Source: an uncultured Gammaproteobacteria bacterium | Lineage (GTDB): Bacteria > Pseudomonadota > Gammaproteobacteria > JAADHQ01 | DNA: 64,000 bases | Direction: 5' to 3' | Assembly (NCBI GenBank): GCA_947258655.1 | Contig: CAMYJD010000003.1 | Span: forward strand, 1 to 64,000 | Part shown: positions 1 through 11,704 of the stretch, piece after piece | How the letters are laid out: each line of letters starts with the position of its first letter | Position numbering within the stretch: position 1 is the first letter of the stretch | Position numbers and translations under genes: made by a program | Notes under the pieces: generated by a model | What the model saw: the letters and a program-made list of their open reading frames with translations, nothing else | Told to the model about the DNA's origin: nothing | Databases searched by the model: none

Positions 1-234
1 ATTGGTGGACGCATGGCCTGGCGCTGATGCATGCCCGGCATTGGCGGACGCATGGCCTGGCGCTGGTGCATGCCCGGCATTGGTGGACGCATGGCCTGGC
101 GCTGGTGCATGCCCGGCATTGGCGGACGCATGGCCTGGCGCTGGTGCATGCCCGGCATTGGTGGACGCATGGCCTGGCGCTGGTGCATGCCCGGCATTGG
201 TGGACGCATGGCCTGGCGCTGTTGCATGCCCGGC
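1..234. repeat. 39-bp tandem repeat, six in-frame units
   Basis: Six consecutive 39-base units, each beginning ATTGGYGGACGCATGG on the plus strand, differ by only one to three substitutions. The array may continue beyond the left edge. All units keep the same frame on the minus strand and encode the MPGMHQRQAMRPP repeat. Variants fall mostly in third positions of that frame, which supports the minus-strand reading over the plus-strand open frames through the same array. Confidence 0.95.
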
Positions 235-479
235 ATCGGCGGGCGCATCACACGACGGGCCGGCATGTGTTGCGGGTTCCAGCGCGGTGCCTGGGCCTGG
301 CGTGGCATAGGACGAGGGTGGATCATGTTATTTCGCCACACGGGAGGCACTTTCGCATTACCTGGTGCGATAATATAACCGCTATGGCCCGGCGAATTAG
401 GTCTGAAGCGGTTATCGGCCTGTACCAGACCTGGAACAGCGATAAGTACAGTCACTATAGTTGCAATGGTCTTATTCAT
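1..479 (-). CDS. Partial exported Met/Pro-rich repeat protein (3' end beyond the window)
   Basis: The reading frame starts at the ATG at 479 on the minus strand, preceded by a GGAG-type ribosome binding site about 8 bases upstream, and stays open to base 1, so the C-terminus is missing. The protein begins with a clear Sec signal peptide (basic MNK, hydrophobic core, cleavage near VQA/DN), followed by about 55 residues rich in Pro, Arg and Asn. From about residue 80 it consists of a 13-residue repeat, MPGMHQRQAMRPP, encoded by near-identical 39-base units. The exported part is Met-, Pro-, Gln- and Arg-rich with no recognisable domain, so the function is unknown. Met-rich periplasmic repeats often bind Cu(I) or serve as oxidant sinks, but nothing here proves that. 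It lies 53 bases after the next exported protein on the same strand and may be co-transcribed with it. Confidence 0.8.
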   Translation of the reverse strand, partial: MNKTIATIVTVLIAVPGLVQADNRFRPNSPGHSGYIIAPGNAKVPPVWRNNMIHPRPMPRQAQAPRWNPQHMPARRVMRPPMPGMQQRQAMRPPMPGMHQRQAMRPPMPGMHQRQAMRPPMPGMHQRQAMRPPMPGMHQRQAMRPPMPGMHQRQAMRPP

Positions 480-532: not shown

Positions 533-1294
533 TCATCTTGCGGGCATAGCCGACTGCACCTTTTTAAAATTTGCTGGCACTTCAAAAATATTCTCAGGCT
601 GTTTACCCAGCTTGATATCCTTTAGTTCACGAATATAACCACCAGGCATCACCTCCTTGATAATAATACCAATTTCCGGATCATACCATTGAAATGTTTT
701 TTCTGAATAACCATCCGGTCGGGTCAGATGTATAACCCATTTTTCTGTATTTCGATTACTTATCTCTTCATTACCCGTCTGTAAAAGTTCGACAGCACTG
801 CCATCAGGGAAAAACTGTCGCAAGGCCTGCCCCCTGTCAACATCCACCCAGATCAATGCCTTCAGCGTTTTACCCCGGACAACACGACTTATCTCCCATT
901 TATCAGCAACACGACCACGTATCTTTTCCTTACCCAGCAACTTACAGCTTTCTCCTTCTATGCCCGTACATGGATTAGTGGATTCAGGTCGGGTTTTACT
1001 CAGGCCCGTATCAACAGAGCGGTTCTTGGCGACCTCGTAAATCTTTTGTTGCGGCAGTACCAGGTACTGCACCCCTTGACTGGGGCGATAAATTTCAATG
1101 ATAGTGTATTGATTATGTATGTATTCCCGACGAATGCCGTCGCTGCCGACATTCATTTTTGCAACTTTTGACTGCCCTTGCGGAAACGTCTGGATAGCGG
1201 TGGCAGAAAATTCAACGGTAGCCGCAATACATCTTTGGCTCAGAATTAATAATAGCAACAGTTTGCATATCAAGATCAATCGTGCAGTCAACAT
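533..1294 (-). CDS. Exported hypothetical protein, possibly LolA/DUF4412-like
   Basis: This 253-residue protein starts with a strong signal peptide (hydrophobic residues 5-23, cleavage near CIAA). The mature part alternates short beta-strand-like segments, such as a stretch ending in GIRREY followed by a tyrosine/valine-rich strand, and carries one Cys pair around residues 108-116. The pattern (signal peptide, about 230 residues, 'surface probe' strands with GIRRE and WVD motifs) resembles LolA-like or DUF4412 periplasmic proteins, but I do not recognise a definite family. It is directly upstream of the Met-rich repeat protein and downstream of a sulfur globule protein gene on the same strand. 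A periplasmic carrier or stabiliser of hydrophobic material would fit the setting; this is inference only. Confidence 0.7.
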   Translation of the reverse strand: MLTARLILICKLLLLLILSQRCIAATVEFSATAIQTFPQGQSKVAKMNVGSDGIRREYIHNQYTIIEIYRPSQGVQYLVLPQQKIYEVAKNRSVDTGLSKTRPESTNPCTGIEGESCKLLGKEKIRGRVADKWEISRVVRGKTLKALIWVDVDRGQALRQFFPDGSAVELLQTGNEEISNRNTEKWVIHLTRPDGYSEKTFQWYDPEIGIIIKEVMPGGYIRELKDIKLGKQPENIFEVPANFKKVQSAMPAR

Positions 1295-1362: not shown

Positions 1363-1791
1363 TTATTTATCTGCTTTTGGTGCTGCAGGTGGTGGTGGTG
1401 GTGGTGCATAGGGTGCGCCATAACCACCAGGATAGCCATAACCACCAGGTGCGCCATAACCACCAGGTGCGCCATAACCACCAGGATAGCCATAACCACC
1501 AGGTGCGCCATAACCACCAGGATAGCCATAACCGTAACCCGGATAACCATAACCGTAGCCGGGATTGCCATAATAACGACCATCGCCGTAACCGCTACCA
1601 CGACCGCTCATATTGAATGACATATTTCCATCACCCCAGCCATCGCCCCAGCCACTGTTATTCCAAGGACCACCGCCCCAAGGGCCACCACCCCAAGGAC
1701 CGCCACCCCACCAGGCCTGGGCAGAACCCATAGGCGCTGCAGCAAAACCCAGCGCAGCAACAACAGATAACACCTTAAGAGTCTTCTTCAT
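1363..1791 (-). CDS. Sulfur globule protein (Gly/Tyr-rich, copy 1)
   Basis: This 142-residue exported protein has a signal peptide [19 protein letters not shown] ending at AQA, then a [10 protein letters not shown] section, the conserved core [13 protein letters not shown], and a C-terminal run of [12 protein letters not shown] repeats ending in a polyproline patch. This matches the sulfur globule envelope proteins of purple and colourless sulfur bacteria: small, exported, Gly/Tyr/Pro/Ala-rich proteins that coat zero-valent sulfur deposits. The start at 1791 is set by a GGAGG seven bases upstream; ten in-frame upstream codons lack such a site. The repeat part is built from 18-base units at 1412-1531, so allele length may vary between strains. 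It shares the core motif with copies 2 and 3 at 10327-10668 and 11276-11704. Confidence 0.88.
1412..1531. repeat. 18-bp tandem repeats inside sulfur globule gene 1
   Basis: Alternating 18-base units (CCATAACCACCAGG plus a variable GTGCG or ATAGC ending) encode the [13 protein letters not shown] repeats. Copies are nearly identical, which suggests slippage-driven length change within the coding frame. Confidence 0.85.
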
Positions 1792-2060
1792 TTCTAAGTT
1801 CCTCCAATCATTAATGGTCATTATTCATGGCTCGATTGCTCGCTATGAATACCGTGCTCCATTGAGTGCATCAAATATATAACTGCTGGAGCAAGCCAGT
1901 TACATAGCACCTATTCCAAACGCATAACCCTCCTATGTTCAGCAAACCTGCTTAGCATAAATCCGGCTATTACATGTAAGAATTCATATCACAATAACTG
2001 AATAGTATAATATTAATATCGCTATTGAATTATTGACCCATGTCAGCAAAATCCAATAAA

Positions 2061-2504
2061 TCACCAACCCGGATAAGAATACATCGCCCCGGGAACCATA
2101 GACCCACCCTGTATACCGGGATAAATCCCGTTCATACCACCAAATCCCGGCAGCATATAAGAATTATAGGGAGACTTGTAACCGTAATAGGGATCTGAAT
2201 AGGGAGAACGCATATATCCATGGTATGGATATGCAGGCTGATTGTAGCGCTGACCAACTCCAGGTTCATGCCATCTATAATATTGCCTGGATGGCTGCCC
2301 GGGCGGCATATTTGCCCAAGGGCGATTACCCGCGGGCACCTGTCGATTATCTGGATAAGACCATGGATTATATCGCAGCCCGTCGGCCTCAAGCAAAGCT
2401 GGAATTATAATCGCGGATATAATGAACAGGATAACATATTGAATCCTGACAGGATTGGTAAGGATGACTTTTTTGTGCATGGACAAAAAGCCTTTGCTCA
2501 TCAT
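2061..2504 (-). CDS. Exported Tyr/Pro/Gly-rich low-complexity protein
   Basis: The protein has up to 147 residues. The start shown is the ATG directly abutting the upstream stop codon (TAA-ATG), which suggests translational coupling; an internal ATG at 2480 would give a more usual signal peptide, MHKKVILTNP followed by a hydrophobic stretch ending LLEA. The mature part has no defined domain and is dominated by Tyr, Pro, Gly, Asn and Arg (for example YNQPAYPYHGYMRSPYSDPY). It resembles the sulfur globule proteins in composition but lacks their GDGxxSF core. With its upstream partner it forms a two-gene unit between sulfur globule gene 1 and the RND pump genes. A structural or matrix role is a reasonable guess; the family is not recognised. 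Confidence 0.72.
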   Translation of the reverse strand: MMSKGFLSMHKKVILTNPVRIQYVILFIISAIIIPALLEADGLRYNPWSYPDNRQVPAGNRPWANMPPGQPSRQYYRWHEPGVGQRYNQPAYPYHGYMRSPYSDPYYGYKSPYNSYMLPGFGGMNGIYPGIQGGSMVPGAMYSYPGW

Positions 2505-2969
2505 TTATCGTCGTGCCCCGTATGGATCCGCATAATGAGGTTGCGGATAAGTCGAATAACCAGGATATGAAGGTGGGTATGCATTGCCATAGGCTTCTCC
2601 ATATTGTGGGTTATAAGCACTCGGGGCAGATCCGGGCGATGGGTAATATCGATACCCATATGGATTTGACATTTGTTCAGCAGGATACGGGGGAGCAACA
2701 TGCCCACTGTATGGTACTGGCGGTTGATGATTGGGCACTGTTTCATGCATATCATAGTAGATATTAGCCGACTTTGGATCTGGGTCAACCTGGTATGGTC
2801 CCAGCGGAGGCGGAGCCATTTCATACCCCATCTCATGGATTTCCTGTGGTACATATCCCTGCATCTGCACAGGTTGATTAAACGTATCTTGCGCAACGAC
2901 ATTCACTGGAAGCCCATAAACGAACAGAAGGATCATCCATTGCCTGCAATCTTTAAACATCTCGCGCAT
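2505..2969 (-). CDS. Exported Pro/Tyr-rich low-complexity protein
   Basis: This protein of about 154 residues has a short hydrophobic N-terminal segment (WMILLFVYGLPVNVVA) that reads as a signal peptide. The start is uncertain: TTG at 2978, ATG at 2969 and ATG at 2960 are all in frame, and the AAAGG motif is best spaced for 2969. The mature chain is acidic and Pro/Tyr-rich in its first half (VDPDPKSANIYYDMHE) and repetitive PY/GY-rich in the second half (YPPSYPGYSTYPQPHY), ending in ARR. It has no domain that I recognise. It lies 36 bases downstream of the RND permease gene and abuts the next exported protein, so the three genes are probably one transcript. Composition and position suggest an extracytoplasmic structural protein working with the pump. 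Confidence 0.72.
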   Translation of the reverse strand: MREMFKDCRQWMILLFVYGLPVNVVAQDTFNQPVQMQGYVPQEIHEMGYEMAPPPLGPYQVDPDPKSANIYYDMHETVPNHQPPVPYSGHVAPPYPAEQMSNPYGYRYYPSPGSAPSAYNPQYGEAYGNAYPPSYPGYSTYPQPHYADPYGARR

Positions 2970-3005
2970 CTCTCTCAACCTTTATAACTCCATAGCCAAC
3001 AAAGA

Positions 3006-6000
3006 CTACTCATTCAAATCCGTTTTAAGACGTATGCCACGTCGCTTACGCGTACCTGGTCTCGCCGTCTGCCGCGCAACTGAGGCTGTAGACGTATCTG
3101 CCTGCGATTTCTCAGTTACACTATTTGTTGATGCTGTTTTCTTGGTTGCAGCCTTTTTAGTTGCAGCCTTTTTAGTTGCAGCCTTTTTAGTTGCAGCCTT
3201 TTTAGTTGCAGCCTTTTTAGTTGAAACACTCTTTGCTTCGGCCTTCTTTGCTTCAGCCTTCTTTGCTTCAGCCTTCTTTGCTTCGGCCTTCTTTGCTTCG
3301 GCCTTCTTTGCTTCGGCCTTCTTTGCTTCGGCCTTCTTTGCTTCGGCCTTCTTTGGTTCAGCCTTTTTAGTTACAGCCTTTTTAGTTGCAGCCTTTTTAG
3401 TTGAAACACTCTTTGCTTCGGCCTTCTTTGCTTCGGCCTTCTTTGGCTCGGTTTTCTTTGGCTCAGCCTTCTTTGCTACTACTTTCTTCGGCGCAGCTTT
3501 ATTAACCTCAGCTTTATTGTTAACTGCTTTTTCTTCTGCTGTCGAAATTTTCGCTGCGTTGCTGCGGCTGGCTGTCTCACTACTTGCGGCAGTGGTATTC
3601 CTGCTGCCTCCCACTCCGCCTGTAGCACCCGTCTGTTGCCTGATCTCTGCCTGGCTACCGCCGCTCGAATTTGATGGTGGCGCCCCTCCAGGCTTGTTAC
3701 CAGGCGCATCTGGCCCAGGACCACCCGATTGCCGGCGTGCGCGGATAAAAGCAATCAGCTTGTCGAGCAACATGCGTATCACAAAGTAAACCGCACGTAA
3801 GATATAAAACACCCAGGTTACTACCGTCACTGTACCTGACCAGATAGTCATCCATAATGGCGTCTTTACCTCACATACATCACCCGGTTCTTCAGCCACT
3901 TCCCGACCGGTTAATATGAAGAATTGTTTTTTGGCTGTAATACAGCCCAACGGAATGACTACCAGGGTTAACATGGTTGATACAGCTGTGCCGAATAACA
4001 GGCTGACCGCCATCCCCTGGAAAATAGGATCTGAAATGATCGCAAATGCGCCTGCCATTAATGTCAACGCAGTAATAAATATCGGACGCATGCGGATCTG
4101 GCCAGCCCTGATAACCGCCTCCTTGATTTCAACGCCAGCACGTACCTCATTCATAACAAACTCCACCAACAGGATGGAGTTGCGGACAATAATGCCAGCA
4201 AGGGCAATGAAGCCGATCATAGAGGTTGCTGTAAACTCGGCATTCATTATCCAGTGTCCCGGAATAATACCGATCAAGGTCAACGGTATTGGCGCCATGA
4301 TCAATCCGCCCAGCTTGAAATTCTTGAACTCCCAGACAATCAAGGCATAGATCAACAGCAAGGCTGCCATAAAGGCCAGACCCATATCACGGAAGGTCTC
4401 ATAGGTTACAGTCCATTCACCGGTCCATTCCATACCTGATTGATTAGTAGCCTCAGGAGGGCCTAATAAACCACCCGGCATACCACTTATCGTGACACCG
4501 TCCGGCGTTTTGTAGTTTGCCAGCAGGTCTTCAATATTAAACATGCCGTAGATGGGTGCACCGAGGCGTCCCTCCATCTCGCCGGTCACATATTCAATAC
4601 TGCGAAGGTCCTTGTGATAAATGATGTGCTCGGCCTGCGCCCTGACAAATTTACCGAGCTCGCCCAACGGAATCGGCTCTCCTTGTCCCTGCCCCTGAAT
4701 CGGCAAGGTTTCCAGTCTTTCAATCTCGGAACGCGCCGCCAGAGGCACCTGGATAACTATAAAAGTTGGCTCCAGTACAGCACCACGCTTTACATCGCCC
4801 AGTTTATAACCACCCAGGGCCATTTCCAGGTTACGGTTGATAATATCGACCGAGACACCGCGCCTGACCGCTTTTTCAGTATCGACTTCGAAGCGCCAGT
4901 ATTGATGCGGCTGGATCATATAATTATCGACATCAACAACACCCTCGGCCTGTGCAAACATTTGGGTCATATCACGCGCGACCTGACGACGCGTTTCTGC
5001 ATCAGGTCCGTATACTTCCGCAACGACCGTTTGCAGTACCGGTGGCCCCGGCGGCATCTCGACAACCTGCAAGCGCACGCCTGAACGCTTCAATTCCTCG
5101 TCTTGACTGATATATTCATTTAACTGCTTGCGAGCATCAACAGCTATATCATGACTGGCGCGCTCCCTGGCATCCTTGTCCAGCAACATAACCTGGATAT
5201 CCGCCTCCCAGGGCTGCTGCCGCAGATAGTAATGACGCACCATACCATTGAAGTTGAATGGTGAAGCTACACCTACATATGTCTGTAATGCAGTAACCTC
5301 GGGCATCTTTTTCAGCACCTCGGCCAATTGCGCTGTTACATTGGCCGTTTGCGGCATCGCTGTGCCCTCGGGCATATTAATGACGACATTAAATTCCGGC
5401 TTGTTATCAAATGGCAACATCTTGACCGTGACGGTTTTGGTATAAAACAGCGCACAGGCAATGAATGTTAATGCAATCAATGTATACAGGAAAATATAGG
5501 GTACGCGTCCGCCAGAACATAATGGCGTCATACAGGGATTATAGAAACGGCCGATCAATTCATTCGTCTTCGCTTCCCTTCTCTCCGCATTTTCAAGTGC
5601 CTTTAACTGAGGGCGTACGCGCATTGCCAGCCAGGGTGCAAAAATAAATGCGGCGACCAGGGAGAAAAACATTGCCGATGAGCCGAGCACCGGTATCGGG
5701 CGCATATAGGGACCCATCAAGCCACTGACAACACCCATCGGCAACATGGCAGCGATAATCGCTAACGTCGCCAGCACAGTCGGATTGCCAACCTCGCGTA
5801 CCGCATCGATGGCGATATCAACCGTAGTCCGACCTGCCTTTAGCCAACGCCTGAAAATATTCTCCACCACTACCGTGGCATCATCGACCAGGATCCCGAT
5901 CGAGAACACCAACGCGAACAGACTGACGCGATCAATCGTATAATCGAGCACCCAGGCTGACCATACAGTAATCAGGATAACGATCGGTATTATAGTAATA

Positions 6001-7199
6001 ACGACTGAAGCCGCTCGCACGCCCAGCCCAATCAAACACAGCAGACTGACCGCGACCGCCGCTTCAAACAGTGCCGTTAACAGTTCATTTACTTTATCGT
6101 CAGCAGTCTTGCCATAGTCACGGGTAATGGCGACCTCCACATCAGGAGAAATCAGGTCACCTTTCAGGCTTTCAAGCCTATTCAGCAAATCGTGAGCAAC
6201 CGTAACCCCATTACTACCGATCTTCTTTGCAATAGCGATCGTAACGGCTGCTGCGGCGCTGGCTTGTGGTGTTGAACCGTCATGCGCACTGCCGGTGTAG
6301 TAGGTAACCATGCGTCCGGTTTCTTCAGGTGCTTCGATGACATTGGCTACATCACGGATATAGACTGGCATACCATTGCGGATACCAACAACCAGCCGGG
6401 ACACATCCTCTGCCGAATACAGAAATGCGCCGGTATACACACTCATGGCCGTATTATCGCCCTCGACACTTCCTGCATGGCGCTCGGCATTCGCAGTACG
6501 AATAGTATTAGCCACCTGGTCAACGCTGATACCAAAGCCGGCCAGGCGTTCGGGTGAAACCTCGACACGAATCTGCTCGGTCCGACCACCGGAAACAAAG
6601 CCCTTACCCGTATTAGGAACTTCTTTCAGGCGCTGCAACACATCCAGCGCCAGGGTCCGCAACAAGGCGTCATCCTGGGTCTCGGACCATAAACTTATTG
6701 TGACGACAGGAACGTCATCAATACCCACGGGCTTGACCAGAGGATGCTTGACTCCTGGAGGCATTTTGTCCAGGTTTGACTGCAGCTTGTCATGTACCTT
6801 GACGATCGATTCCTCGAGGTTTTCACCCACCTTGAAACGTACCGTTACGATCGCATCGCCACGGCGGCTGGCTGAATAAACATGACGAACACCTGGAATT
6901 TCACTCATGATGCGTTCCAGCGGATCGGTAACCAGACTGGCCACCTGTTCGGTGGAAGCGCCCGGATACTGGACAAAAATATCCACCATGGGAACAGAGA
7001 TCTTGGGATCTTCCTGGCGCGGCGTGAAAAAAAGCCCCAACAGTCCTATGGCCAAAGCAGCCATCATTAGCAAGGGTGTGACGGGTGAGTTGATAAATGC
7101 CTGGGCCAAACGGCCGGCTAATCCCAAATTTACTGTATCAAGTACTTCCTGTTTCTGCTGATCCTCGGGAGATGCTTTTTTTTCTGATTGTTCGCTCAT
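3006..7199 (-). CDS. RND-family efflux permease with Lys/Ala-rich cytoplasmic tail
   Basis: This 1397-residue inner-membrane transporter belongs to the RND superfamily (AcrB/CusA-like). It has a first membrane helix at about 42-58, a porter loop carrying the YPGAS and DPLE motifs (78-94), a membrane block from about 375 with the proton-relay motif GILVDDA (435-441), a second porter loop, and a final membrane block from about 930 to 1100. The usual family length is 1020-1070. The extra 300 residues are another hydrophobic segment (about 1125-1160), a Gly/Ser/Pro linker, and about 120 residues of KKAEA/KKAAT repeats ending in a basic GTRKRRGIRLK stretch. The adaptor gene lies 101 bases upstream; no outer-membrane channel gene is nearby. 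The substrate is unknown. The tail resembles histone-H1-like domains and would face the cytoplasm. Confidence 0.9.
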   Translation of the reverse strand: MSEQSEKKASPEDQQKQEVLDTVNLGLAGRLAQAFINSPVTPLLMMAALAIGLLGLFFTPRQEDPKISVPMVDIFVQYPGASTEQVASLVTDPLERIMSEIPGVRHVYSASRRGDAIVTVRFKVGENLEESIVKVHDKLQSNLDKMPPGVKHPLVKPVGIDDVPVVTISLWSETQDDALLRTLALDVLQRLKEVPNTGKGFVSGGRTEQIRVEVSPERLAGFGISVDQVANTIRTANAERHAGSVEGDNTAMSVYTGAFLYSAEDVSRLVVGIRNGMPVYIRDVANVIEAPEETGRMVTYYTGSAHDGSTPQASAAAAVTIAIAKKIGSNGVTVAHDLLNRLESLKGDLISPDVEVAITRDYGKTADDKVNELLTALFEAAVAVSLLCLIGLGVRAASVVITIIPIVILITVWSAWVLDYTIDRVSLFALVFSIGILVDDATVVVENIFRRWLKAGRTTVDIAIDAVREVGNPTVLATLAIIAAMLPMGVVSGLMGPYMRPIPVLGSSAMFFSLVAAFIFAPWLAMRVRPQLKALENAERREAKTNELIGRFYNPCMTPLCSGGRVPYIFLYTLIALTFIACALFYTKTVTVKMLPFDNKPEFNVVINMPEGTAMPQTANVTAQLAEVLKKMPEVTALQTYVGVASPFNFNGMVRHYYLRQQPWEADIQVMLLDKDARERASHDIAVDARKQLNEYISQDEELKRSGVRLQVVEMPPGPPVLQTVVAEVYGPDAETRRQVARDMTQMFAQAEGVVDVDNYMIQPHQYWRFEVDTEKAVRRGVSVDIINRNLEMALGGYKLGDVKRGAVLEPTFIVIQVPLAARSEIERLETLPIQGQGQGEPIPLGELGKFVRAQAEHIIYHKDLRSIEYVTGEMEGRLGAPIYGMFNIEDLLANYKTPDGVTISGMPGGLLGPPEATNQSGMEWTGEWTVTYETFRDMGLAFMAALLLIYALIVWEFKNFKLGGLIMAPIPLTLIGIIPGHWIMNAEFTATSMIGFIALAGIIVRNSILLVEFVMNEVRAGVEIKEAVIRAGQIRMRPIFITALTLMAGAFAIISDPIFQGMAVSLLFGTAVSTMLTLVVIPLGCITAKKQFFILTGREVAEEPGDVCEVKTPLWMTIWSGTVTVVTWVFYILRAVYFVIRMLLDKLIAFIRARRQSGGPGPDAPGNKPGGAPPSNSSGGSQAEIRQQTGATGGVGGSRNTTAASSETASRSNAAKISTAEEKAVNNKAEVNKAAPKKVVAKKAEPKKTEPKKAEAKKAEAKSVSTKKAATKKAVTKKAEPKKAEAKKAEAKKAEAKKAEAKKAEAKKAEAKKAEAKKAEAKSVSTKKAATKKAATKKAATKKAATKKAATKKTASTNSVTEKSQADTSTASVARQTARPGTRKRRGIRLKTDLNE
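3131..3480. repeat. 15-bp tandem repeat array encoding KKAEA/KKAAT
   Basis: About two dozen 15-base units, mostly CTTCGGCCTTCTTTG and TTGCAGCCTTTTTAG on the plus strand, form two alternating blocks that are themselves duplicated around 3220 and 3400. They encode the lysine/alanine repeats at the C-terminus of the RND permease. Frame is kept throughout, so the tail is under selection to remain open. Confidence 0.95.
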
Positions 7200-7300: not shown

Positions 7301-8707
7301 TTATCTTTTTACAGGGTTCTGCCCGGATGAAGCCGGAGGCCTGTCCTGATTGGTTTTACCCGTCGGGTTAACCAAAATATTGTCATTATTTTGCAGACCC
7401 GACAACACGGTAACCATATTTTCGTTAATCTTCTCACCCAGACGCACATAACGAATAGCCGGCTTGTTTTTATCATTGAGGCGATACACAACGAACAGGC
7501 TACCTCGCTGACGCACAGCAGTGGCCGGAATAATAATGACATTCCGCGAAGGTACACTGACGTTCGGTATTACCACCTCGGCATACATACCGGGACCGCC
7601 AGGCACGCCTTCCGGCAAATCGAATTTCACCGTCACAGTATGACGTTGAATGTCCGCCATCGGGAATATTTGCGCCACTTTGGCCTTTATATGTTTGTCA
7701 CCAACATCCAGTTTTGCATCAACAATCATACCTGGCTGGATTCCCGGCATCAGACGTGCAGGAATATCGACCTGCAGCTGCAACGCCTTGGTGTCTGCAA
7801 ACTTCAGCAGCGGCTGTCCCGGTTGCACCGTGTCACCCACCTCGACCAGCTTCCCGACAATCAGGCCCGAGAATGGTGCGATTGCGCGCGTATCCCTGAG
7901 CTTGGCATCCACCTCTTCCAGTTTCGAACGTGTCCGTAACAAACGCGCCTGCGCCTGGTTAACGGCTGTGCCACGAGAATACAAATCTGCATGACGGTCC
8001 ATTCCAGGACTGCCGTAACCCATCGCATTACCCAAACCGCGAGTGAAGAACTGGTCGAACATGGATGGCATGCCCATGCCGGGGCTACGATTAATATTGC
8101 GCGACTGCGGTGAAATCAACTCGCGTGAATATTGTACTTGGGCATTTCTAATAGCAGACTCGGCATTACCCAATTCGGCAACTGCTGCACGACGTTGCGC
8201 AAGCAGATCATCATCGTCAATAGCTACCAGGATCTGCCCGTGCTCCAGGTAATCACCCTCTGCGCCCGCAATGAATTCAATTCTTCCCGGGATTTGTGCT
8301 GACAAAGTAACATCCTTGAATGGAATCACCGTACCACCCAGCTTTACCGTACTGCTCATTGGCCGAGCACGCACCACATAGACCGGGTTATTACTATAGT
8401 GTTGCTGTGGAGTATGCATCATACCCTGCTGAAAAACAGGGGCGGACTGATAAGACATTGACTGCGCAGAGCCCATGTCAGTTGATGGATAACCTGTTGA
8501 TGGTTGAACGCCCTGCTGATAAGCAGGAGCAGACTGATATGGCGCCAATGGCGTGCTACCCATACCTGTCGATGGATAGCCAGTATTGCCCTGCGTATAG
8601 GGAGCCTGAGCCCTGTTTTGATAATAGGGGGGCGCTGCCTGCACATTTCCAATGACTGAAATGGCTATAAGAAGTACTACACCTGAAGATAACAGTTTTT
8701 TTAGCAT
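7301..8707 (-). CDS. RND periplasmic adaptor (membrane fusion protein) with Tyr/Pro/Gln-rich N-terminus
   Basis: The start at 8707 gives a 468-residue protein with a typical signal peptide (MLKKLLSSGVVLLIAIS, cleavage near VQA); a start at 8749 would bury it. Residues from about 25 to 118 are low complexity (PYYQNRAQAPYTQ, GYPSTGMGS and SAPAYQQG repeats). The classical adaptor order follows: lipoyl half with IPGRIEFI, a helical hairpin containing a Met/Gly-rich insertion (SPGMGMPSMFDQFF), the second lipoyl half (APFSGLIVGKLVEVGD), and beta-barrel and membrane-proximal domains. It should link the permease encoded just downstream to an outer-membrane partner or, given the unusual N-terminus, to periplasmic material. 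The N-terminal composition mirrors the exported Tyr/Pro-rich proteins of the same cluster. Confidence 0.88.
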   Translation of the reverse strand: MLKKLLSSGVVLLIAISVIGNVQAAPPYYQNRAQAPYTQGNTGYPSTGMGSTPLAPYQSAPAYQQGVQPSTGYPSTDMGSAQSMSYQSAPVFQQGMMHTPQQHYSNNPVYVVRARPMSSTVKLGGTVIPFKDVTLSAQIPGRIEFIAGAEGDYLEHGQILVAIDDDDLLAQRRAAVAELGNAESAIRNAQVQYSRELISPQSRNINRSPGMGMPSMFDQFFTRGLGNAMGYGSPGMDRHADLYSRGTAVNQAQARLLRTRSKLEEVDAKLRDTRAIAPFSGLIVGKLVEVGDTVQPGQPLLKFADTKALQLQVDIPARLMPGIQPGMIVDAKLDVGDKHIKAKVAQIFPMADIQRHTVTVKFDLPEGVPGGPGMYAEVVIPNVSVPSRNVIIIPATAVRQRGSLFVVYRLNDKNKPAIRYVRLGEKINENMVTVLSGLQNNDNILVNPTGKTNQDRPPASSGQNPVKR

Positions 8708-8790: not shown

Positions 8791-9186
8791 TCAGGCTTGC
8801 CCCATCACAGCAAAACTTTTGATAAACGGCCCCGCCATGCGCGGGTCCTTGATCATCGCAGCATAATCACCTAGATTGAATTTCAATTTACGAGATGTAT
8901 AGGCTATACCCAGCCCCATCATGCCGGGTGGCTTTTTCATCCACTTGCCCCAGTTCTCGGGGGTAGCCCTGAGATCCCAATTGAGATCCTCGCCCTGAAA
9001 ACTACCAGCATTGACAGCATATCCGTTTTCGACCACCAGCACCCCGCGCGGGCTCTCTTCTCCATCAAATCCGTAGCCAATCACCGAGTTGAACTGGATA
9101 GCGGCCAGTTTTTCAGCTAACTCCTGTTCTGCATTCCACCGTTCCATGTAGGACTTCATCCACTCATCTGAAAACAGATCTGCCAT
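8791..9186 (-). CDS. SCP2 sterol-carrier-like domain protein
   Basis: This 131-residue soluble protein has no signal peptide and starts at an ATG with GGAG six bases upstream. The sequence follows the SCP2 fold pattern: an N-terminal amphipathic helix (SDEWMKSYMERWNAEQELAEKL), central strands with a GVLVVENGYAVNAG turn, and a C-terminal helical part (KLKFNLGDYAAMIKDPRMAGPFIKSF) resembling the LxGDxxxxL end of SCP2 domains. SCP2-like proteins bind lipids or other hydrophobic ligands. It sits 83 bases upstream of the adaptor gene on the same strand and may lead that transcript. Whether it handles lipids, sulfur chains or fatty acyl groups cannot be told from sequence. Confidence 0.6.
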   Translation of the reverse strand: MADLFSDEWMKSYMERWNAEQELAEKLAAIQFNSVIGYGFDGEESPRGVLVVENGYAVNAGSFQGEDLNWDLRATPENWGKWMKKPPGMMGLGIAYTSRKLKFNLGDYAAMIKDPRMAGPFIKSFAVMGQA

Positions 9187-10326: not shown

Positions 10327-10668
10327 TTACTTGGCAGCTGGTGCAGCCGGTGCAGCTGGTGCGGCAGGAGCACCATAAGGAGCACCATAAGGAGCACCAT
10401 AAGGAGCACCATAAGGAGCAGCACCATAAGGAGCATAGCCATATGGAGCATAGCCGCCATAGTATGGGTTTCCGTAACCATAGCCGTTACCATACATACC
10501 AGTATTGGCACGTGTGTTCATGCTAAATGACATGTCTCCATCACCAAAGCCATTACCCCAGCCGTTGTTACCCCAACCATTGTTCCATGGATTCCAGCCC
10601 CAGGCACTGGCAGAACCTGCAGCGGCCAGCATTACAGTTGCTGCGATGAATGTAGTTATCTTTTTCAT
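10327..10668 (-). CDS. Sulfur globule protein (Gly/Tyr/Ala-rich, copy 2)
   Basis: This 113-residue exported protein starts at 10668, where GGAGAG lies seven bases upstream; a longer in-frame start at 10731 has no such support. It shows a signal peptide ending ASA, a [11 protein letters not shown] section, the family core [14 protein letters not shown], then a GYG/PYY part and four PYGA repeats followed by [12 protein letters not shown]. The architecture matches copy 1 (1363-1791) and the known sulfur globule envelope family. The different repeat chemistry (PYGA/AAP here, GGYGAP in copy 1) suggests different packing roles in the envelope. The 289 bases upstream are strongly AT-rich and hold its promoter region and a divergent 35-residue membrane protein. 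Confidence 0.88.
10366..10425. repeat. 12-bp tandem repeats inside sulfur globule gene 2
   Basis: Four to five copies of AGGAGCACCATA encode the PYGA tetrapeptide repeats; the copies are identical or nearly so, consistent with slippage. Confidence 0.85.
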
Positions 10669-10957
10669 TAATTTCTCTCCAGTATTTTCGTCATAAGATT
10701 TAGGGGCGAACCTCGACCCTAATTTGATCAAAATTTATATAAATTAATATTTCAATATTTAATAATATATTAAATTATCAATTTTTAACTTTTCCACGAT
10801 ACCCTCCATCTCATTGATATTTATTATTTTTATTACTGATTGGCGTTATTGTACCGGCTGATTGACATACTTGTAATCATTAATAACTTGAAATATAGGT
10901 AATTAATATTATTATTATATTATGTTTTCCTAACTAATTGAATATTGAGGTGACAAG

Positions 10958-11275: not shown

Positions 11276-11704
11276 TTACTTCGCTTTGTAACGCTTATTC
11301 ATCATGGCCATGTGCTCTTCATAGGCCTTCTTTTGTGCTTCCATTGCAGCCTTGCGTCGTTCTTCCATACGGGCCATCATTTCTTTTTGTGCCTTCTGAC
11401 GTGCTTCAAAGGCAGTTTTTTGCCTTTCTTCCATTTGCTTATGGAAATCTGCAGCTGCTTTCTTTTGCTCTTCTGTCTGCGCAGGAGCAGGTGCATATCC
11501 ATATGGAGCATAACCATAGTAAGGGTTATTATATCCGTAACCATTACCGTGCACGTTAGAACGTGCATTCATATTGAAACTGAAATTTCCATCTCCATAA
11601 CCATTTCCATTTCCATTACCAAAACCAGGTCCACCGAACCATGCACTAGCAACTGAACTGGCGCCCATGAGTGCTGCTGCAATTAAAGCTTTGTTGAATT
11701 TCAT
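11276..11704 (-). CDS. Sulfur globule protein with charged coiled-coil tail (copy 3)
   Basis: This 142-residue exported protein starts at an ATG with GGAGAAGAG just upstream. It has a signal peptide ending VASA, a short [14 protein letters not shown] section, the family core [14 protein letters not shown] and a [18 protein letters not shown] stretch. Unlike copies 1 and 2, the last 65 residues are highly charged and helical, rich in Glu, Lys, Gln, Arg and Met with heptad-like spacing ([20 protein letters not shown] and similar). This looks like a sulfur globule protein fused to a coiled coil that could oligomerise or bind another component such as the RND adaptor. The N-terminal identification is firm; the role of the tail is inferred. 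Confidence 0.85.

What the first reader, a model, noticed from the sequence alone, without database searches (positions are those of the whole stretch)
7301..8707. Periplasmic adaptor with a globule-protein-like disordered N-terminus
About 90 residues rich in Tyr, Pro, Gln, Ser and Gly precede the lipoyl domain, and a Met/Gly-rich insertion sits in the hairpin. Ordinary adaptors lack both. The composition matches neighbouring exported proteins.
Basis: partly seen in the sequence, partly recalled or inferred. Interest (0 to 1): 0.55.

Follow-up and report, generated by a model that had tools for sequence, protein, structure and literature searches.

The report
Sulfur-globule operon with pump and ParA
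An odd-looking pump adaptor turns out to belong to a conserved gene cluster found in most bacteria that make sulfur-granule coat proteins, and the pump in that cluster carries a tail that comes and goes together with a ParA-type cargo-positioning ATPase, which suggests a machine that builds and places the sulfur granules.

Summary
The adaptor (7301-8707, minus) has the disordered Y/P/Q/S/G-rich extension described (residues 25-104). The long form is confined to the window's genus and one other family; most globule-protein bearers lack it. The Met/Gly hairpin insert is a near-invariant signature of a whole adaptor subfamily, not globule-like low complexity.

The larger find is the operon. Adaptor, RND pump, exported Pro/Tyr-rich proteins, sulfur globule protein, LolA-fold protein, ParA ATPase, membrane TPR protein, DUF302 protein, coiled-coil protein and dynamin-like GTPase recur in Gamma- and some Alphaproteobacteria; all 46 loci with at least two of five marker genes keep one order.

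In 369 Gammaproteobacteria the adaptor subfamily occurs in 53 of 56 genomes with a globule-protein hit and 25 of 313 without; the link holds among dsrA-positive genomes. The RND pump has a basic low-complexity C-terminal tail ending in RRGIRLK. Tail motif and ParA co-vary (46/1/2/12 of 61 genes; all 6 informative independent pairs agree).

Best reading: a globule-biogenesis pump that ParA positions through its tail. Cluster and correlations are computed; transport, docking and positioning are inferred. Searches of a held open-access library found no such system, apart from one sentence placing A. vinosum sgpD next to an exporter gene.

The parts
7301..8707 (-). RND-type periplasmic adaptor (membrane fusion protein), 468 aa
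   Evidence: fold matches to TMexC/AcrA/MacA/MexA/CusB adaptors
8396..8635 (-). disordered Y/P/Q/S/G-rich N-terminal extension, residues 25-104, with a ~29-aa tandem duplication
   Evidence: alignment
8009..8113 (-). hairpin-tip insert, residues ~199-233, with the subfamily signature GMGMPSMFDQFF (short helix 216-228)
3006..7199 (-). RND permease (ACR_tran) with a long C-terminal extension, 1397 aa
3006..3575 (-). Lys/Ala-rich low-complexity C-terminal tail of the RND permease (resembles histone H1-like HC2), inferred to be cytoplasmic
   Evidence: PF07382 42.4 bits over residues 1220-1388; tandem repeats 3145-3504
3024..3044 (-). RRGIRLK motif near the C-terminus of the RND tail, conserved across families and co-varying with ParA
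2505..2978 (-). exported Pro/Tyr-rich protein; its PPPLGPY resembles the PPPPGPY of proteins at the same place in relatives
2061..2504 (-). exported Tyr/Pro/Gly-rich protein
1363..1821 (-). sulfur globule protein (PF17228, 33.8 bits, cut-off 26.7)
533..1294 (-). exported DUF4412-like protein, predicted LolA/LprG-type fold
   Evidence: PF14371 20.6 bits, just under its cut-off of 21.6; AlphaFold and Foldseek
8791..9186 (-). 131-aa protein directly upstream of the adaptor (cluster c17), no family match in Pfam or NCBIfam
10327..10671 (-). sulfur globule protein (PF17228, 55.8 bits)
11276..11704 (-). sulfur globule-like protein (PF17228 22 bits, under the cut-off)

Best explanation
The adaptor is the periplasmic subunit of an RND machine dedicated to sulfur globules. 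Shown by computation: adaptor and RND pump head a conserved cluster (adaptor, RND, exported Pro/Tyr-rich proteins, globule protein, LolA-fold protein, ParA ATPase, membrane TPR protein, DUF302 protein, membrane coiled-coil protein, dynamin-like GTPase). The subfamily co-occurs with globule proteins, also when dsrA status is held constant. The RND C-terminal motif co-varies with the ParA gene. Inferred: the RND-adaptor pair moves a hydrophobic or amphiphilic substrate (lipid, polysulfane or coat material) between the inner membrane and the periplasmic globule, helped by the LolA-fold carrier. The conserved hairpin tip contacts something other than a usual TolC, or contacts it differently. The basic RND tail lies in the cytoplasm and its RRGIRLK end docks on ParA, so that nucleoid-bound ParA spaces and shares out the complexes and the globules attached to them. 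The dynamin-like, coiled-coil and TPR proteins shape or anchor the membrane around the globule. In the window's genus the adaptor's N-terminal tail is an extra coat-like disordered segment that may touch the globule coat.
For: Co-occurrence in 369 Gammaproteobacteria: adaptor (E<=1e-80) 78, globule protein 56, both 53, adaptor only 25, globule protein only 3; Fisher p 7e-41, not corrected for kinship. Among 117 dsrA-positive genomes 48/18/2/49, p 2.6e-15; among 252 dsrA-negative 5/7/1/239. All 27 families with a globule-protein hit include an adaptor. The 3 apparent misses hold the operon's ParA, and one also an adaptor fragment. Operon: 57 of 58 loci with enough room have the adaptor just upstream of the RND; 46 of 46 loci with two or more of five downstream genes keep one order (maps). 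ParA: 65 genomes, 62 with the adaptor. RND tail motif against ParA, 61 intact genes: 46/1/2/12, p 6.5e-10; on the RND tree 6 informative independent pairs, 6 the same way, sign test p 0.031. ParA-less operons keep TPR, coiled-coil or dynamin-like genes (L041, L046, L050, L060, L113, L119, L160, L161, L165). Dynamin-like GTPase in 33 of 40 adaptor genomes and 2 of 40 without. LolA/LprG fold for the DUF4412-like protein. Partners of ParA/MinD ATPases dock through charged, disordered ends (PMC10241942, passages). In A. vinosum the gene of SgpD, its most abundant globule protein, lies next to a hydrophobic/amphiphilic exporter gene (PMC10386293, passages).
Against: No experiment. 25 adaptor genomes have no PF17228 hit; of 19 such loci examined, 10 carry an exported low-complexity ORF in the operon and 9 do not. 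A listed Pfam-level globule gene lies within 10 kb of the adaptor in only 17 of 53 genomes. Seven of 40 adaptor genomes lack the dynamin-like gene and 16 of 78 lack ParA, so ParA and dynamin are not essential. A sign test on six pairs cannot give a smaller p than 0.031. Two loci (L066, L074) and G129 have the motif without a ParA hit. An extra hydrophobic stretch after the last RND helix in several members could change the side on which the tail lies; L071 and L074 lack it and keep the motif. Known ParA partners dock by the N-terminus; here it would be the C-terminus.
Confidence: 0.6

Rival explanations
1. An ordinary efflux pump (metal, sulfide, solvent or drug) that sulfur oxidisers need because of their habitat; its nearness to globule genes is incidental.
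For: Adaptor and permease score as RND efflux subunits. Another MFP-RND operon of A. vinosum, described as metal efflux, rises on pyrite (PMC11267869, passages).
Against: The association with globule proteins holds within dsrA-positive genomes. Fixed gene order with exported low-complexity proteins, ParA and a dynamin-like GTPase is not usual for efflux operons (recalled). The permease is far below the cut-offs of the named efflux models.
Confidence: 0.2
2. ParA positions or segregates the RND complexes only (as for chemotaxis arrays or carboxysomes), and the link to globules is indirect: these proteins serve general envelope organisation in sulfur bacteria.
For: The operon also occurs in genomes without a PF17228 hit (25 of 78); the motif tracks ParA, not globule proteins (G121, G245 and G182 have globule proteins but neither ParA nor motif).
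Against: 53 of 56 globule-protein genomes have it. PF17228 misses globule-like ORFs in the operon.
Confidence: 0.15
3. The N-terminal extension is neutral low-complexity drift (repeat slippage) in a few lineages, without binding function.
For: Length varies from about 5 to 110 residues between families and even within the genus; it contains a tandem duplication. Most globule-protein bearers lack it.
Against: The composition resembles the exported Pro/Tyr-rich neighbours, and a long form is also present in a second family (L078).
Confidence: 0.5
4. The motif-ParA correlation reflects operon decay by descent, not physical docking.
For: Few independent events (6 informative pairs).
Against: ParA-less operons keep flanking TPR, coiled-coil and dynamin-like genes. 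G182 lacks both while its near relatives G294 and G389 have both.
Confidence: 0.25

Closest known systems
RND tripartite efflux systems (AcrAB-TolC, MexAB-OprM, CusBA): periplasmic adaptor and permease
   Same: Domain order, fold (Foldseek hits to TMexC, AcrA, MexA, MacA, CusB), adaptor next to permease
   Different: Conserved ~35-residue GMGMPSMFDQFF cap at the hairpin tip; R-x6-L-x3-S motif (the TolC-docking motif, recalled) in only 1 of 35 hairpins; permease with a long basic C-terminal tail ending in RRGIRLK; no outer-membrane channel among the clusters followed
ParA/MinD positioning systems (McdAB for carboxysomes, ParC for chemotaxis arrays)
   Same: ParA-type ATPase (nearest solved relative ParF) encoded with its presumed cargo; a basic low-complexity peptide as presumed docking end
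   Different: Presumed partner is an inner-membrane RND permease docking by its C-terminus; the cargo would be a periplasmic inclusion
Sulfur globule proteins SgpA-D of Allochromatium vinosum
   Same: PF17228 genes in the window and in many operons; sgpD lies next to an exporter gene (PMC10386293, passages)
   Different: The paper passages read name no ParA, dynamin or LolA-like partner
MMPL/RND lipid export with LprG/LppX carriers of mycobacteria (recalled)
   Same: RND permease encoded with a LolA/LprG-fold periplasmic protein
   Different: Sequence families differ; substrate unknown; TM-scores low (about 0.2-0.4)
Dynamin superfamily (EHD, bacterial dynamins)
   Same: Dynamin_N domain in a member (L071); EHD4 the only solved relative found (E 2e-5)
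   Different: Distinct conserved family (A4), found mostly in adaptor-bearing genomes

Membership tests
RND periplasmic adaptor (TIGR01730) | curated model score above cut-off | tested here: met
   168.2 bits against 94.9
RND periplasmic adaptor (TIGR01730) | alpha-hairpin, lipoyl, beta-barrel fold | tested here: met
TolC-docking adaptor | R-x6-L-x3-S motif (recalled) in the hairpin | tested here: not met
   1 of 35 hairpins; the tip carries the subfamily insert instead
RND permease (AcrB/HAE1-like) | ACR_tran domain above cut-off | tested here: met
   472.6 bits against 28
Named multidrug or metal RND permease | score above a named NCBIfam model | tested here: not met
   best 415 bits against 1250; CusA/CzcA 264 against 701
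Sulfur globule protein (PF17228) | score above cut-off | tested here: met
   for the neighbours 1363-1821 and 10327-10671; 11276-11704 scores 22.0 against 26.7. The adaptor itself gave no PF17228 hit
ParA/MinD positioning system | ParA-type ATPase with K-G-G-x-G-K-S-T Walker A | tested here: met
   alignment A2; own gene at L183 862-1518; CbiA/ParA domain in L045; NCBIfam ParA_partition 133.8 bits, under its cut-off of 180
ParA/MinD positioning system | partner with a basic disordered end that binds the ATPase and links it to cargo | tested here: inconclusive
   tail motif co-varies with ParA; binding not testable here
ParA/MinD positioning system | cargo mislocalised without the ATPase | not testable with these tools
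   needs a knockout
LolA-like carriers | LolA/LolB-type half-barrel fold | tested here: inconclusive
   Foldseek E 1.8e-8 to LolA3 with low TM-score (0.36)
Dynamin superfamily | Dynamin_N GTPase domain | tested here: met
   L071 55.5 bits against 27; the own-genome member was not scanned with Pfam

The most novel reading that the evidence does not exclude
Sulfur globules have a dedicated trans-envelope organelle machine: an RND pump whose cytoplasmic RRGIRLK tail is the cargo handle for its own ParA ATPase, so that periplasmic sulfur inclusions are positioned and shared out over the nucleoid through the inner membrane, with a dynamin-like GTPase and a LolA-type carrier helping to build the inclusion, and in some genera a coat-like tail on the adaptor gripping it.
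Probability: 0.35. Interest if true: 0.92.

Novelty: new variant of a known kind. Interest (0 to 1): 0.75.

Why it matters
Globule coat proteins have been known for decades, but how globules are built, fed, emptied, placed and inherited is open (recalled; the passages read deal with coat proteins). This cluster names candidate genes for those steps, including a pump, a carrier, a positioning ATPase and a membrane-shaping GTPase, and gives a short peptide whose binding to ParA is a simple test. It would also be the first ParA cargo that lies beyond the inner membrane, in the periplasm, as far as I recall.

Tried and rejected
Met/Gly insert as a globule-like feature: rejected, it is the signature of the subfamily. 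N-terminal extension as the mark of globule formers: rejected, most globule-protein bearers lack it. Adaptor merely tracking sulfur oxidation: rejected by splitting on dsrA; 51 of 117 dsrA-positive genomes lack the adaptor. First extraction of adaptor ORFs picked wrong frames for L009 and L012-L014 and was redone. A first motif count required a tail pattern that failed in many rows and was redone without it. Start codons were chosen by a hydrophobicity rule; some are uncertain, and many re-fetched loci began inside the gene ('nostart'). L044 had no good start; in A1 its row starts at a guessed residue.

Rows dropped or set apart: ParA hits of G264 and G359 (E about 1e-32) were not counted (65 of 67 genomes kept). 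RND genes cut by contig ends, shorter than 1040 residues or weakly scoring were left out of the motif counts. G097 counts as 'no motif' although the motif is in another frame. L141 is a second adaptor-RND copy of G018. The motif pattern was widened after seeing HRGIRLN, WRGIRLN, TRGIRLK and RGIKLK variants, and the V/R letters were added. The E<=1e-80 limit for the adaptor was set after seeing the gap between 1e-83 and 1e-49. The two sets share at least five genomes (L047, L050, L053, L060, L072 equal G324, G348, G380, G245, G164), so they are not independent. In one search these five repeats were left out. The tree is a FastTree with a warning about long branches (G164 with the G150 group). 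One search tested 80 chosen genomes (40 of 78 with the adaptor, 30 of 49 dsrA-positive without adaptor or globule hit, and 10 others), not all 369. The list of SGP places was cut, so the 17 of 53 is a lower bound.

Literature, all in the held open-access library: 'sulfur globule protein'+RND 1 paper (unrelated metal efflux), 'sulfur globule'+ParA 0, +efflux 15 (listing; two read in passages, PMC11267869 and PMC7787665), +positioning+carboxysome 2 (listing), +dynamin 1 (PMC6509183, passages: SUP05 cells lack dynamin), 'amphiphilic exporter' 1, 'partitioning protein' 1 (PMC5088516, passages: unrelated), inheritance/segregation 0. PMC7356093 was read in passages. Closed-access papers, including the A. 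vinosum proteome paper (not held), could not be read.

Full report
What was claimed.

The observation. The gene at 7301-8707 on the minus strand encodes a 468-aa RND-type adaptor. Residues 25-104 are 62% Y/P/Q/S/G, which no other 80-residue stretch of the long ORFs in the window reaches (0 of 2494), and are predicted disordered. Their composition is closest to the two exported Pro/Tyr-rich neighbours, less so to the globule proteins themselves. The neighbourhood does contain sulfur globule proteins: PF17228 over its cut-off at 1363-1821 and 10327-10671, and under it at 11276-11704.

The two features differ in meaning. The hairpin insert is the hallmark of a subfamily: G210, G212, P214 and D218 are invariant in 35 aligned adaptors from gammaproteobacteria and from the alphaproteobacterial records L043, L054 and L073 (titled Magnetospira, Rhodobacteraceae and Magnetovibrio). 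One of the six search peptides contained the motif, but members found by unbiased searches carry variants of it. In the model it forms a cap with a short helix at the tip of the hairpin, where ordinary adaptors meet TolC (recalled); the R-x6-L-x3-S pattern is found in only 1 of 35 hairpins. The N-terminal extension, in contrast, is long only in three members of the window's genus and in one genome of another family, shorter in a few, and absent in most.

The operon. Profile searches of the fetched loci show a fixed order: adaptor, RND, exported low-complexity proteins and globule protein, DUF4412-like protein, ParA, TPR protein, DUF302 protein, coiled-coil protein, dynamin-like GTPase. Of 58 loci with an RND gene and at least 6 kb held downstream, 57 have the adaptor just upstream, and 31, 37, 34, 20, 38 and 29 have the DUF4412-like, ParA, TPR, DUF302, coiled-coil and dynamin-like genes; all 46 loci with two or more of the five ordered markers (DUF302 was not ordered) keep the order. 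In the window's own genome the contig breaks in a tandem repeat at the start of the window, and ParA to dynamin lie at the start of another contig (L183).

Co-occurrence. In 369 Gammaproteobacteria genomes the adaptor subfamily (E<=1e-80) is in 78, PF17228 (E<=0.001) in 56, both in 53. The 3 globule-protein genomes without it have the operon's ParA, and one has an adaptor fragment at E 1e-49. All 27 families with PF17228 include an adaptor. The association remains among 117 dsrA-positive genomes (48 both, 18 adaptor only, 2 globule protein only, 49 neither) and among 252 dsrA-negative genomes (5, 7, 1, 239). P values from Fisher's test are not corrected for kinship. Of the 25 adaptor genomes without PF17228, 19 had loci that could be examined for in-operon proteins and 10 carry exported low-complexity ORFs, several plainly globule-protein-like, so the Pfam model undercounts. 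The dynamin-like GTPase is in 33 of 40 adaptor genomes tested and in 2 of 40 others.

The RND tail and ParA. The permease carries a long low-complexity, Lys/Ala-rich C-terminal tail (PF07382 HC2 match over 1220-1388) ending in RRGIRLK. The ending is conserved across families although the tail itself is not. ParA of this family is in 65 genomes, 62 of them with the adaptor. Among 61 intact RND genes, motif and ParA agree in 58: 46 both, 12 neither; exceptions are G129 (motif, no ParA; 88% complete), G097 (motif in another frame) and a second RND copy in G018. In the 29 loci the counts are 21, 2, 0, 6 (ParA); at least five genomes are in both sets. On the RND tree 6 independent pairs that differ in the motif also differ in ParA the same way, none the other way (sign test p 0.031, the least possible for six; 2 further pairs do not differ in ParA, and vanish when the G097 frameshift and the G018 copy are allowed for). 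ParA-less operons keep neighbours such as the TPR, coiled-coil and dynamin-like genes, so the loss is specific. In L071 and L074 the tail follows the last RND helix directly, which puts it in the cytoplasm if the usual RND topology holds (topology recalled).

How it may work. ParA/MinD partners bind their ATPase through a positively charged disordered end and may be part of the cargo itself (PMC10241942, passages). The RND tail has this character. The DUF4412-like protein is predicted to have the LolA/LprG fold, a fold of periplasmic carriers of lipids and lipoproteins (recalled), which fits a hydrophobic substrate. I therefore read the cluster as a globule-building pump positioned by ParA. 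Steps shown: gene content, order, co-occurrence, co-variation. Steps inferred: substrate, docking, positioning, membrane shaping, and contact of the adaptor's N-terminal tail with the coat.

What is known. The passages of PMC10386293 state that in A. [quoted passage not shown] section 15 of that paper reports that deleting sgpD did not affect growth, globule formation, or globule size and number. No paper in the held library joins globules with ParA or with a dynamin of this kind.

Verdict. The extension is a minor, lineage-limited trait; the adaptor's operon is the finding. It is made of known kinds of parts, in a combination that I did not find described in these searches.

Noticed in passing
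window 1-248: A 39-bp tandem repeat (6.4 copies, 95% matches) sits at the contig end, where the assembly breaks inside the operon.
   Followed up: partly
window 3145-3504: Tandem repeats of 15, 30, 45 and 105 bp encode the Lys/Ala-rich RND tail; the tail resembles histone H1-like proteins (HC2, hist_H1_lk).
   Followed up: partly
L183 1537-3065: The TPR membrane protein gene of the own genome is interrupted by a run of N beside a short repeat (AEQ units).
   Followed up: no
L183 5934-7821: After the dynamin-like gene come two similar multi-pass membrane proteins and a small 117-aa protein, possibly a PII-linked transporter pair (name recalled).
   Followed up: no
L045, L049, L051, L055-L059, L061, L063-L065, L075, L076: In one group of MAGs the adaptor is preceded by an EpmA-like (lysyl-tRNA synthetase-like) gene and, in all but L061, an EF-P-like gene (names recalled from sequence).
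   Followed up: no
G018 C30 and C49: One genome has three adaptor copies; one RND copy (L141) lacks the tail, another (L155) has it: a natural tail-free control.
   Followed up: partly
G085, G167: Two dsrA-positive genomes without the adaptor have the dynamin-like GTPase.
   Followed up: no
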